This document shows positions 30,046-33,136 of a DNA stretch of 64,000 nt, one piece after another. The DNA comes from Desulforamulus reducens MI-1. GTDB taxonomy: Bacteria > Bacillota > Desulfotomaculia > Desulfotomaculales > Desulfotomaculaceae. The stretch covers positions 62,001 through 126,000 of the forward strand of contig NC_009253.1 of assembly GCF_000016165.1 (NCBI RefSeq). Direction: 5' to 3'. Under the pieces are notes generated by a model. It was not told where the DNA came from, made no database searches, and saw only the letters and a list, made by a program, of their open reading frames with translations. The position numbers were made by a program, and so were the translations under genes. Positions within the stretch are counted from its first letter, which is position 1, and each line of letters opens with the position of its first letter.

Positions 30046-30348
30046 TTGTTTGGAAACCTAGGTGGTATGCTTTCTCAGGTGCAAAATATGCAAGAAAGTT
30101 TAAAGCAGATAATAATTGAGGTGACTGTTGGTGAAGGCAATGTGGCGGTTACCATGAATGGAAGTCAGAATTTGGTCAATGTTAAGGTTTCTCCTGAGGC
30201 CATCCAAGAGGATGTGGCCAAGCTAGAAGACCTAATCGTTGAAGGAATAAAGTTGGCCCAACAGGAGAGCCGAACCAAAGTACAGGAAGAAGTGGCAAAA
30301 ATAACAGGAATTAACATAGGAAATTTTATGAACATGTTTAAGGGCTAA
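30046..30348 (+). CDS. YbaB/EbfC-like protein, copy 1
   Basis: A 100-residue protein resembling the YbaB/EbfC nucleoid-associated family: helical N-terminus with M-L-S-Q-V-Q-N-M-Q, a central sheet with V-T-V-G-E-G-N-V-A-V-T-M-N-G-S, and a helical end with A-K-I-T-G-I-N-I-G. The usual chromosomal copy of this family sits between dnaX and recR; this one does not. It is 13 bases ahead of a diverged second copy. The start is TTG 30046 behind GGGAGGTGG. Function in this setting is unknown; DNA binding is the family expectation. Confidence 0.72.
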   Translation: MFGNLGGMLSQVQNMQESLKQIIIEVTVGEGNVAVTMNGSQNLVNVKVSPEAIQEDVAKLEDLIVEGIKLAQQESRTKVQEEVAKITGINIGNFMNMFKG

Positions 30349-30361
30349 GGGAGGTGAGTAT

Positions 30362-30661
30362 GTGTTTGGTAATATGGCAAAGGTTGTAGGTCAAATTCAG
30401 AATATACAGCAATTTTTAAAGGATATGACTGTGGAGGGCACTGCTGGGGATGGCCTAGTCAAGGTTATTATCAATGGCCAGCAAAGTATTCTAGCAGTAC
30501 GTTTTGACCCGGATCGGATAAGCGCAGTGGAACCAGAAGCTTTAGGACAAATGATCACAGAAGCTTACAATCAAGCACAATTAGAAAGCAAGGAGAAGGC
30601 CAAAGAAGAAGTAACAAAAGCCACGGGGTTAAATCTATCCAATTTACCCGGGATATTTTAA
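30362..30661 (+). CDS. YbaB/EbfC-like protein, copy 2
   Basis: A 99-residue protein of the same layout as its upstream neighbour (M-F-G-N-M-A-K-V-V-G-Q-I-Q-N-I-Q, G-D-G-L-V-K-V-I-I-N-G-Q, A-T-G-L-N-L-S-N), clearly a tandem paralogue but diverged over most positions. YbaB proteins form dimers, so a heterodimer of the two is plausible. GTG 30362 follows GGGAGG. The IS110-family element begins about 150 bases downstream; the gap holds a short TATACCCT/AGGGTATA hairpin near 30731. Confidence 0.72.
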   Translation: MFGNMAKVVGQIQNIQQFLKDMTVEGTAGDGLVKVIINGQQSILAVRFDPDRISAVEPEALGQMITEAYNQAQLESKEKAKEEVTKATGLNLSNLPGIF

Positions 30662-30833
30662 GCCCAGCGGTGATATGTCAAGAGAATGATTCTAAAAAAT
30701 TGGAAATTAATTTAACAAAAGTGTACCCTATACCCTAAAAAAGGGTATACAAAATAAGCCCACCAGTTAAGCAAAGAAAAATTCCCTTTAAATGGTGTAA
30801 ATGGAAAAGAGAGTAGATTTTAGGGTAAAGACG

Positions 30834-32069
30834 TTACCCCCTCCTCTCTGGTGAAGTGTACAGTTGCCTGGTGTTTAGTAGCGAAAACACCAACCGTACC
30901 AGTTTTCTAGCGGTTAAGACGAGAGCCCTTTTATGTTTGTGTTTTGGTACTTCATCATATTTCTTTTGGTAGAAGTCTTTGTACTCAGGAACATGCTTCC
31001 GTACAGAATCAGCAGCCTGAATTAAGTAATAACGAAGATACTTGTTCCCGGTCCTGGTTCTGCTGGTATCTTCGGCTTCAAATTCACCTGATTGATGTTG
31101 GTTCCAAGTTAAACCGGCATATTTAGCCAGAGCATTATGGTCTTTAAAGCGTTGGATATCTCCGGTTTCTGCCATGATTCCGGCGGTAAAAACATCTCCA
31201 ATCCCTTTAACGGAAGTTAAAGTTTGGGGAAGGCCCTTCATGATTTTGGCGATTTCTTTGTCCAGTTTTTTCACTTCCGATTCCATATGTTTAATTACAT
31301 TAAGCATAGTGGCCAAAGAAATATTCACAGGGTCAGCCATCGCCTTGTTCAGTCGATAAGAAGACCGGGCAATTTTTTGAAGATAAAGAGCAATTTCCTC
31401 CGGATTATCGAAACGGTTTTTCCCTTTATCCTTTAAGAAATCAACCAGTTCTTCCATAGACATGGCTACAATTTGTTCCGGTTCTAGTTCTTGGATAACA
31501 GCAAGACAGGTGCTGCCAAAAAGATTGGAAAATGGGTTATCCTGGCGTAAACCACTAAACTTTAAGAAGACCTGATTAAGAAAATAGGTTTTGTCCCGAG
31601 TGATATTTTGCATCAGGTGAAATCGTGTCCTTGTAAGCCTCTGCAAAGCCTCGTATTGAATAATGTCTTTCATGGCATGAGGTAGTCGACCAAAACGAAG
31701 GTGGTCTGCAATTACCCAGGCATCGATGCGGTCGTTCTTTGGGAGGGTGTCATACCCCTTTTTGAAACGGGCCACTTTTCGTGCATTAAGAACGTAAATC
31801 TGTGTATCTTTTTGGGGGCAAGTGGTTTGAAGCTGTTCTTGCAAATAGTGAGCAAGGTGCCAACCCAGATTTGAAGTTGCCTCCATACCAATTCGAAGGG
31901 ATTGACTTTTGATTCTATCAGATGTATCAACAATCTTTTGAATGAGGGTGTCGGCCCCCTGCCGATTGTTGTGAATAGAAAAAGAAGCCAATGCCCCTCC
32001 GTCTCCATCCATAAATTGTACATGGTGAGACTGTAAGCTAACGTCTATTCCCACCAACATTTGTGACAT
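30834..32069 (-). CDS. IS110-family transposase (DEDD/serine recombinase)
   Basis: A 411-residue transposase, apparently intact. The N-terminal RuvC-like DEDD part has G-I-D-V-S near residue 7, G-M-E-A-T near residue 62 and N-D-R-I-D-A-W-V-I-A-D-H near residue 114. The C-terminal Transposase_20 part has S-V-K-G-I-G-D-V-F near residue 289, Y-A-G-L-T near residue 322 and a Ser-rich segment ahead of G-N-K-Y-L-R. Current knowledge holds that these enzymes recombine DNA guided by a bridge RNA made from the element's own non-coding end. The ATG at 32069 is preceded by GGGAGGTG on the minus strand. Confidence 0.93.
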   Translation of the reverse strand: MSQMLVGIDVSLQSHHVQFMDGDGGALASFSIHNNRQGADTLIQKIVDTSDRIKSQSLRIGMEATSNLGWHLAHYLQEQLQTTCPQKDTQIYVLNARKVARFKKGYDTLPKNDRIDAWVIADHLRFGRLPHAMKDIIQYEALQRLTRTRFHLMQNITRDKTYFLNQVFLKFSGLRQDNPFSNLFGSTCLAVIQELEPEQIVAMSMEELVDFLKDKGKNRFDNPEEIALYLQKIARSSYRLNKAMADPVNISLATMLNVIKHMESEVKKLDKEIAKIMKGLPQTLTSVKGIGDVFTAGIMAETGDIQRFKDHNALAKYAGLTWNQHQSGEFEAEDTSRTRTGNKYLRYYLIQAADSVRKHVPEYKDFYQKKYDEVPKHKHKRALVLTARKLVRLVFSLLNTRQLYTSPERRG

Positions 32070-32478
32070 AGGATCACCTCCCTGTTCTAAAAAATCAGGT
32101 TGGTCTCAGACCTGGGTGCCCATGGGAACCATCGAAAGCTGCCTCGTCATCAGCACTCATCATTAACATGAAGACAATTCGGGGTGCTACTCCCCCTTCA
32201 TGGAAAGAGGTGCAACCAGCGGTTAGATCATCGATGATGGATCATGGGTAGCAGGCTTATTAAGCAGTACCAAAAGGTCCGCAAGGAGGGAAAGAAATAT
32301 CCCGAGAACAACCTGTTAATCCCATTGTCCCATGGGGAGGTCTGAACTGCCAGACAATAATTGGAAGTGTAAAAAAGGCAATAGAAAACCGACCCGGTCA
32401 GGAAACCTCAAAAGAAATCTCCAGGGGGCCGGCATTAAGAATCACAATATCTTAAATTATGGAGCTGTAGTTATTAGT
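32070..32478 (-). ncRNA. Putative bridge-RNA region in the IS110 leader
   Basis: The 409 bases between the element's left end and the transposase start have no plausible gene on either strand but have local self-complementarity, for example GGTCT/AGACC near 32100. In the IS110 group this is where the bridge RNA, with target- and donor-binding loops, is encoded. The placement is inferred; I could not fold the RNA or match its loops to the flanks. Confidence 0.5.
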
Positions 32479-32488
32479 ATCTACTCTC

Positions 32489-33136
32489 CCTGATCAGGGA
32501 TTGACTGTGGATAATCTTGTATGTTTTCTAAACATCACCACCATATTTAGGGTACTTAGACTCAGTTTAGACAATGACCTTATCCACATAAACAATAGCC
32601 GCGCGACTGACTGGTACCATTATTGCACCCAGTGTGGAATTGGTTATCATTTTAGCTGGTCTCGATACCCGTTATCGAGAACCGGTTCTCATACATGGAC
32701 TCCACCTTATTCCATTTATGGAAATTAGGTTTGTCCAGTGAATCTATTACTATTATACGAGGAGGGTATCCTTGTCGTCGCACATCTTTTTAGCGCCTTA
32801 ACTTTATTAATTGCTGTTTTCACTGCTTCGAAAGTCACTCGCTATAGATAACGAAATCCCTTTGACTACTTTCAAGCAGTTTGGAAGGGTATGCCCCAGG
32901 GCCTACCCTTTTGTGCGTTATAAAACATTTCAGTGCATAGGGCAAAGTAAGCTTGTGCTAACGACTAAAAGTCTTTGCCCCGTGCACATCCAGCAGGGAA
33001 TTAAGAAGCCAGTCTTTCTAACCATGCAAAATTTGTCTTTAAACAATGTAACACAACGTCGCCCTTTCTCATAATTTAATGTAAGAACGGTCCCGGGATA
33101 TCGTTCAAAGATTTGAATCATAAGGAGGAATATTGG
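32489..33136. other. Non-coding stretch right of the IS element, with palindromes
   Basis: No convincing gene on either strand; the short open frames lack ribosome sites and have atypical composition. It contains the palindrome TCCCTGATCAGGGA (32487-32500), the inverted repeat TCTCGATA/TATCGAGA (32660-32680) and the overlapping perfect palindrome GAGAACCGGTTCTC (32677-32690). It may be the decayed remains of a gene. Confidence 0.5.

What the first reader, a model, noticed from the sequence alone, without database searches (positions are those of the whole stretch)
32070..32488. IS110 element with a 409-nt leader that may encode a bridge RNA
The transposase is intact (DEDD residues and the C-terminal domain are present) and a long non-coding leader lies at its 5' side, where IS110 bridge RNAs are encoded. 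Short inverted repeats GAGAGTAGAT bound the element. IS110-type programmable recombination is recent knowledge, and this could be a further natural example.
Basis: partly seen in the sequence, partly recalled or inferred. Interest (0 to 1): 0.6.

Follow-up and report, generated by a model that had tools for sequence, protein, structure and literature searches.

The report
Jumping gene aimed at ribosome-binding sites
The element is an IS110-type jumping gene whose own predicted guide RNA carries a copy of the ribosome's "start here" recognition sequence, so it inserts just in front of genes, in their ribosome-binding sites, and related elements in many other bacteria do the same.

Summary
The window carries one of five identical copies of an IS110 element. 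Its true ends are window 30660-32765; the GAGAGTAGAT repeats are internal and chance-level. The leader is 692 nt, not 409. Its inner part (about 32317-32100, minus strand) encodes a conserved structured RNA: 16 of 36 pairs show compensatory changes in 22 relatives. All four bridge-RNA guides can be placed. The target guide reads CCCUC-CU, and the five targets in this genome are AAGGAGG, the Shine-Dalgarno (SD) sequence.

Across 45 related elements, guide and target covary (195/225 matches, permuted 151±4.7, 0/20,000); donor guides covary too. Of 68 distinct insertions, 55 sit at SD distance from an open reading frame's start codon (11-18 in shifted windows). One copy lies in a CRISPR spacer, whose length (31 or 38 nt, against 37-45 in the array) shows that the SD bases belong to the target. 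A second, 24%-identical, IS1111-like element in the same genome also sits in SDs, 8/8.

So this is an RNA-guided transposon clade of Bacillota aimed at translation-initiation sites. I found no description of this. RNA expression and transposition are inferred, not shown.

The parts
30661..32761 (-). Whole IS110 element, core CT to core CT; 2099 bp as a circle with one core
   Evidence: Five identical genomic copies over window 30660-32765. The outermost CCTC (32762-32765) and T (30660) are target-derived, by guide match and the CRISPR spacer ruler.
30834..32069 (-). IS110 transposase/recombinase, 411 aa, DEDD RuvC-like plus Transposase_20 domains
   Evidence: Pfam; sequence matches to solved ISCro4 and IS621 recombinases
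32070..32761 (-). Left end (LE), 692-nt non-coding leader
   Evidence: Boundary from the five copies and conserved LE start CTCGTATAAT in relatives
30661..30833 (-). Right end (RE), 173 nt including core
   Evidence: Five copies; conserved TTGACATATCACCGCTGGGCT end
32100..32317 (-). Predicted bridge RNA, about 215 nt; exact ends inferred
   Evidence: Conserved in all close relatives; consensus fold with compensatory changes; 5' end inferred from the -10 box at 32324-32329
32284..32290 (-). Left target guide (LTG) CCCUC-CU, including core; contains the anti-Shine-Dalgarno core CCUCCU of 16S rRNA
   Evidence: Guide-target covariation, 195/225 matches vs 151+-4.7 permuted, 0/20000
32256..32263 (-). 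Right target guide (RTG) UUAAUAAG; pairs with CT-T... of the right target
   Evidence: AAG (or UAG) conserved; RT+1 is T in 35 of 41 elements; three of the five elements with RT+1 = A have RTG UAG (L107, L108, L110); further positions match only weakly, 63 vs 52+-5
32264..32282 (-). Hairpin GCGGACC...GGUACUGC separating LTG and RTG in the target loop
   Evidence: Helix 2: 4 of 7 pairs with compensatory changes, 98% paired
32216..32224 (-). Left donor guide (LDG) AACCGCUGG; matches RE ACCGCTGGG
   Evidence: Covaries with the RE in 38 elements, 227 vs 194+-4.2 permuted, 0/5000
32143..32147 (-). Right donor guide (RDG) ACGAG; reverse complement of core+RD CTCGT
   Evidence: Elements whose LE begins CTTG carry CAAG or a near form here instead of CGAG
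32752..32757 (-). -10 TATAAT of the circle-junction promoter
   Evidence: With the -35 in the RE: 17-bp spacer in 41 of 43 elements, at most 2 mismatches in all 43
30676..30681 (-). -35 TTGACA of the circle-junction promoter
   Evidence: As above
32324..32329 (-). -10-like GACAAT (extended, TGn) of a probable internal promoter of the bridge RNA
   Evidence: Near-invariant in close relatives; several have a TTGACA-like hexamer 16-18 nt upstream
32389..32401 (-). Terminator-like hairpin upstream of the bridge RNA
   Evidence: Consensus scan only; hairpin-plus-T-run sequences are visible at this place in several relatives
32760..32765 (+). Retained Shine-Dalgarno AGGAGG of the target, at the LE junction; a possible UUG start codon (9-codon frame) follows in this copy
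   Evidence: three other copies in this genome have clear ATG starts with long frames

Best explanation
This is an IS110-group insertion sequence with a bridge RNA in its left end. Excised as a circle, it forms a TTGACA-N17-TATAAT promoter across the RE-LE junction (sequence shown, activity inferred). Its leader gives a bridge RNA whose donor guides pair with the element's ends (LD ACCGCTGGG, RD CGT) and whose target guides pair with CCTC-CT-T, the complement of the Shine-Dalgarno sequence AAGGAGG. The recombinase then exchanges strands at the CT core, so the circle lands inside the ribosome-binding site of a gene, with the transposase pointing away from that gene. Because the left half of the target stays at the LE junction, the gene keeps AGGAGG and its start codon. 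A target of about 7 bp, present about 20 times per 64 kb in this window, explains why the five sites share no longer consensus. The same target logic is used by relatives down to about 31% protein identity across Bacilli and Clostridia. Shown here: copy number, boundaries, conserved RNA fold, guide/junction covariation, start-codon spacing. Inferred: transcription of the RNA, its binding, the circle, and transposition activity.
For: Five identical 2106-bp copies. LTG-target covariation, 195/225 vs 151+-4.7, 0/20,000, also within the >65% identity subclade (69/75 vs 54.6+-2.6, 0/20,000); LDG-LD 227 vs 194+-4.2, 0/5,000; RDG switch CGAG/CAAG with LE CTCG/CTTG. RNA fold: 16/36 pairs with compensatory changes. 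68 distinct insertions: 55 have an open start codon at SD spacing vs 11-18 in shifted windows; ATG peaks at offsets 12-13. CRISPR spacer ruler: 31 nt or 38 nt against 37-45 nt in the array, and the restored spacer reads AAAGGAGG-N6-ATG. Orthologous glgC-like loci in the genus are uninterrupted and carry an SD at the insertion point, e.g. AAAGGAGGGGTTTTATG. Junction promoter in 43/43.
Against: No RNA-seq or biochemical evidence. The right target guide constrains little beyond one base. A few guides match their present flank poorly (L050, L051, L053, L054, L057, L060, L101, L103: 3 of 5 positions). L002 and L005 have no long downstream ORF, L002 because it sits in a CRISPR array. 55% of AAGGAGG sites in the window are followed by an open start anyway, so part of the gene-start association follows from the motif itself. 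Related sequences are not independent, so the permutation counts are not strict probabilities.
Confidence: 0.92

Rival explanations
1. The element inserts nearly at random, and the SD/start-codon pattern reflects selection: only insertions that keep a gene's SD and start codon, in intergenic DNA, survive.
For: The five sites in this genome share no consensus beyond CCTC-CT-T; intergenic insertions are generally favoured.
Against: Selection alone would not make the leader's guide change together with the junction bases (L100 CACCC, L107 AGTCCC, L104 CTCTC, L082 CTCCTC, L094 CCCCTC). The SD bases are pre-existing target, as shown by the CRISPR spacer, a site without any SD-dependent gene in place.
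Confidence: 0.05
2. The leader is only a regulatory 5' UTR or attenuator of the transposase; the matches to the ends are incidental.
For: Terminator-like hairpin and two promoter-like sequences in the leader; ISPpu9 transposase is reported to be regulated through its 5' UTR (PMC8450116, title and abstract).
Against: Several separate matches to four different sequences (LT, RT+1, LD, RD), three of them covarying across elements, sit at the loop positions expected of a bridge RNA in the consensus fold.
Confidence: 0.03
3. The real mobile unit is the shorter 30810-32490 element bounded by GAGAGTAGAT, carried inside another repeat.
For: A 10-bp inverted repeat is present.
Against: No copy of the outer pieces exists without the inner one; the outer ends, not the inner repeats, are conserved in relatives; the repeat is at chance level.
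Confidence: 0.01

Closest known systems
IS621 (IS110 group; Durrant et al. 2024, PMC11208160; structural companion paper PMC11208158)
   Same: DEDD recombinase, bridge RNA in a long LE, LTG/RTG/LDG/RDG, CT core, short RE, circle-junction sigma-70 promoter, ATA/TAT next to the donor
   Different: IS621 targets an 11-bp sequence in REP elements; here the target is about 7 bp, the Shine-Dalgarno sequence of genes. LE is 692 nt and the RNA has a probable promoter of its own. In the predicted fold LTG and RTG are two strands of a three-way junction rather than of a simple internal loop. Recombinase sequence similarity to solved IS621 is weak (E=1.6e-4).
ISEc21 and IS1111-group seekRNA elements (Siddiquee et al. 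2024, PMC11187229)
   Same: RNA-guided target choice by a non-coding region; junction promoter; upstream NCR in the IS110 type
   Different: Targets described in the passages read are linear sites such as IS3 transposase codons, attC ends and REP; Shine-Dalgarno or ribosome-binding-site targets are not mentioned.
Second IS110-family element of the same genome (L041-L048, 8 copies)
   Same: Also inserts in SD sequences (8/8); predicted guide AAAGGAG...CCUCC
   Different: IS1111-like layout (LE 123 nt, RE 384 nt, RNA predicted in the RE), co-oriented with the target gene, 24% identical recombinase

Membership tests
IS110 family (DEDD recombinases) | PF01548 DEDD domain and PF02371 C-terminal domain with conserved serine | tested here: met
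   motif positions; alignment to ISCro4
IS110 group (versus IS1111 group) | LE longer than RE; non-coding RNA in the LE; no long subterminal inverted repeats | tested here: met
   LE 692 nt, RE 173 nt; RNA in the LE; no conserved long subterminal repeat seen
Bridge RNA systems | Structured RNA conserved by covariation | tested here: met
Bridge RNA systems | Target guides matching the left and right target including the core | tested here: met
   LTG covaries; RTG constrains essentially RT+1
Bridge RNA systems | Donor guides matching LD and RD | tested here: met
   LDG covaries; RDG switches with the LE
Bridge RNA systems | Core dinucleotide shared by donor and target, no target duplication beyond it | tested here: met
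   CT at both ends; restored sites read CCTC-CT-T; CRISPR spacer length 38
Bridge RNA systems | Promoter formed at the circle junction | tested here: met
   TTGACA-N17-TATAAT-like in 41 of 43, by sequence only
Bridge RNA systems | RNA expressed and bound by the recombinase; reprogrammable | not testable with these tools
   Needs RNA-seq and transposition assays

The most novel reading that the evidence does not exclude
In Bacillota, RNA-guided transposons of both the IS110 and the IS1111 groups have settled on the Shine-Dalgarno sequence as a universal target: their guides copy the 16S anti-SD or the SD itself, they insert between a gene's upstream region and its start codon on opposite strands, and they leave an SD intact, so the element becomes a portable 5' region that keeps its host gene translatable.
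Probability: 0.6. Interest if true: 0.85.

Novelty: new variant of a known kind. Interest (0 to 1): 0.76.

Why it matters
IS110 elements are known for narrow, element-specific targets such as REP sequences or attC sites. A guide aimed at the Shine-Dalgarno sequence gives a mobile element many hundreds of sites in a genome, including those of new hosts and phages, and the target is held in place by the ribosome and cannot easily be lost. The insertion spares the coding sequence, start codon and SD. This explains how such elements reach many copies without an obvious target consensus, and why target logos can fail when target bases are counted as part of the element. It also gives dozens of natural guide/target pairs with low specificity, useful for understanding mismatch tolerance of bridge recombinases, and a directly testable prediction: change the anti-SD-like guide and the insertion site should change.

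Tried and rejected
Rfam scan of the region: nothing up to E=5. GAGAGTAGAT as element ends: rejected. First impression that the five targets share nothing: rejected once the ends were seen to contain target bases. Search for a phage carrying the interrupted CRISPR protospacer: no match in viral contigs. Use of the other IS110 element of the genome as a negative control: it turned out to be an SD-targeter too. The right target beyond +1: weak signal only (63 vs 52+-5). Literature: combined searches for IS110 or IS1111 with Shine-Dalgarno or ribosome-binding-site terms returned no paper whose title or abstract describes this target, and the one promising hit did not concern it; the two main papers do not mention such a target. 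ISfinder itself and the supplementary data could not be searched. A covariance-model search and structure prediction were not run, since the alignment evidence was already strong.

Full report
WHAT IS THERE. The window lies in a 3,608,104-bp single-contig genome. From its size and from a Desulforamulus relative among the hits I take it to be Desulforamulus (Desulfotomaculum) reducens MI-1; this rests on memory and is not needed for the argument. The IS110 transposase is 30834-32069 on the minus strand, 411 aa, with both Pfam IS110 domains and sequence similarity to the solved ISCro4 and IS621 recombinases. The genome has five copies, identical over the full query. Extending the comparison gives 2106 identical bases, window 30660-32765, after which the flanks differ at once. 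Ten-base inverted repeats of that kind are expected by chance, and no separate copies of the outer pieces exist. The leader is therefore 692 nt and the right end 173 nt.

RELATIVES. One scan of genome contigs gave 42 loci, including ten copies in Bacillus dakarensis; whole-genome searches raised this to 15 copies there and gave many 45-57% identical relatives. They end in the same way in transposase orientation: LE starts CTCGTATAAT, RE ends TTGACATATCACCGCTGGGCT(T), with small variations. Joined as a circle these make TTGACA-N17-TATAAT: 41 of 43 elements have exactly 17 bases and all 43 have at most two mismatches. This corresponds to the junction promoter known from IS110 elements (PMC11187229, PMC11208160).

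THE RNA. Aligning the leaders shows a strongly conserved block in the last 250 nt before the gene, while the outer part varies in length and sequence. An alignment of 22 of these RNAs folds to a consensus with 36 pairs, 16 of them with compensatory changes. 97.1% of cells are paired, 91 cells have changes on both sides against 27.6+-5.0 in shuffles, and sliding the partners by 1-3 columns destroys the signal. The structure has an outer stem (window 32306-32302 with 32109-32105), a hairpin (32282-32264), and a long inner stem whose internal loop holds the donor guides. A near-invariant extended -10 box, GACAAT, lies at 32329-32324, so I place the 5' end near 32317; this is inference.

THE GUIDES. 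On the 5' side of the hairpin sits CCCUC-CU (32290-32284), the left target guide; on the 3' side UUAAUAAG (32263-32256), the right target guide. In the inner loop, AACCGCUGG (32224-32216) matches the right end ACCGCTGGG and ACGAG (32147-32143) is the reverse complement of the left end CTCGT. These were tested by covariation. Over 45 elements, five left-target positions match the guide in 195 of 225 cases against 151.4+-4.7 when targets are permuted, 0 of 20,000; within the >65% identical subclade 69 of 75 against 54.6+-2.6, 0 of 20,000. Individual pairs are persuasive: L082 CTCCTC and L094 CCCCTC come from two closely similar leaders, and L100 ACACCC, L104 CTCTC, L107 AGTCCC and L083 TCCCC differ from the usual guide and yet match their own targets. 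The donor guide follows the right end (CCTAG, GTGAG, CCGCAGG and others), 227 against 194+-4.2, 0 of 5,000. Elements whose left end begins CTTG instead of CTCG carry CAAG (L056: AAAG) instead of CGAG in the right donor guide. The right target guide constrains the first base after the core (T, or A in three elements whose guide has UAG) but little more.

THE TARGET. Read from the other strand, the left junction is AGGAGG or a close variant, followed by a short spacer and a start codon. In 68 distinct insertions, 55 have a start codon with at least 25 open codons at offset 8-17 from the core, against 11-18 of 68 in windows shifted by 20-120 bases; ATG peaks sharply at offsets 12 and 13. As a baseline, 18% of random positions, 35% of AGGAGG and 55% of AAGGAGG in the window meet the same criterion. 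So the guide's preference for the Shine-Dalgarno sequence explains much of the association, and selection against coding insertions may explain the rest. In this genome the targeted genes are a phosphoglycerate-mutase-like gene, a glgC-like gene and an amino-acid ABC binding-protein-like gene (names by inspection), one site behind a YbaB-like gene (the window copy), and one spacer of a CRISPR array.

PROOF THAT THE SD IS TARGET, NOT ELEMENT. Because all five copies share CCTC-CT and CT-T, one could think these belong to the element. The CRISPR copy argues strongly otherwise: 21 uninterrupted spacers of that array are 37-45 nt long; the interrupted one would be 31 nt if the bases belonged to the element and is 38 nt if CCTC-CT-T is target. 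The restored spacer reads, on the other strand, CAAAGGAGGTATATTATG, an SD and start codon, as expected of a captured phage gene start; no matching phage was found. At the glgC-like locus, relatives of the same genus have no element at this point and carry SD-like sequence there, e.g. AACCAAAGGAGGGGTTTTATG in L196.

HOW IT WORKS (inferred from IS621 and ISEc21: PMC11208160, PMC11208158, PMC11187229). The recombinase excises the element as a circle; the junction promoter and probably the internal promoter give the bridge RNA; the RNA bridges the circle junction and an SD; strands are exchanged at CT. After insertion the target gene keeps AGGAGG and its start codon, with the element's left end in place of its former upstream region.

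HOW FAR IT EXTENDS. Relatives at about 31% identity (G149, six copies) also insert at CCTCC-type sites with start codons nearby. The other IS110-family element of this genome (24% identical, eight copies) has an IS1111-like layout, LE 123 nt and RE 384 nt, and inserts into SDs in 8 of 8 cases, co-oriented with the target gene. Its relatives in G043, G115 and G040 show the same pattern in most copies, and the right ends contain AGGAGCA, matching the left junction. Whether the two clades converged or share this from an ancestor was not tested.

KNOWN OR NEW. By every feature I could test this is an IS110-group element with a bridge RNA, so the mechanism is of a known kind. The Shine-Dalgarno target, with a guide containing the anti-SD core, was not found in the searchable open literature, and the two main papers do not mention it. 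ISfinder and supplementary tables were not searchable, so an unpublished or tabulated observation cannot be excluded.

LIMITS. Nothing here shows expression, RNA binding or transposition. The related sequences are not independent, so the permutation counts are strong but not strict probabilities. The role of the outer 390 nt of the leader, with its terminator-like hairpin, is unexplained.

Noticed in passing
L041-L048 (own genome, 8 copies); L210-L214, L221-L227 in other genomes: A second, 24%-identical IS110-family element with IS1111-like layout also inserts into Shine-Dalgarno sequences, co-oriented with the target gene; its right end contains AAAGGAG and CCTCC close together.
   Followed up: partly
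L186:2818-6720 (genome about 1764818-1768720): A CRISPR array of at least 23 repeats (37-nt unit) is interrupted by one copy of the element; the restored spacer reads as a phage-like SD plus start codon.
   Followed up: yes
window 32380-32760: The outer 390 nt of the leader is variable between relatives (total leader about 320-840 nt); a terminator-like hairpin lies between the circle-junction promoter and the bridge RNA's own probable promoter. Function unexplained.
   Followed up: partly
L211 (G043): One copy of the IS1111-like element appears to have a tandem repeat of its own right end (AAGATTATTAAGGGA) at its 3' junction.
   Followed up: no
window 30046-30661: Two adjacent paralogous genes of about 100 codons (YbaB-like by inspection) precede the element; in the restored site the stop codon of the second overlaps the AAGGAGG target (TTTTAAGGAGG).
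   Followed up: no
16S rRNA 3' end (general knowledge, no coordinates): The 16S anti-SD DNA (CACCTCCTTT) itself fits the predicted target, so rRNA operons could be targets; no insertion followed by the 16S sequence was noticed among the 68 sites listed.
   Followed up: partly
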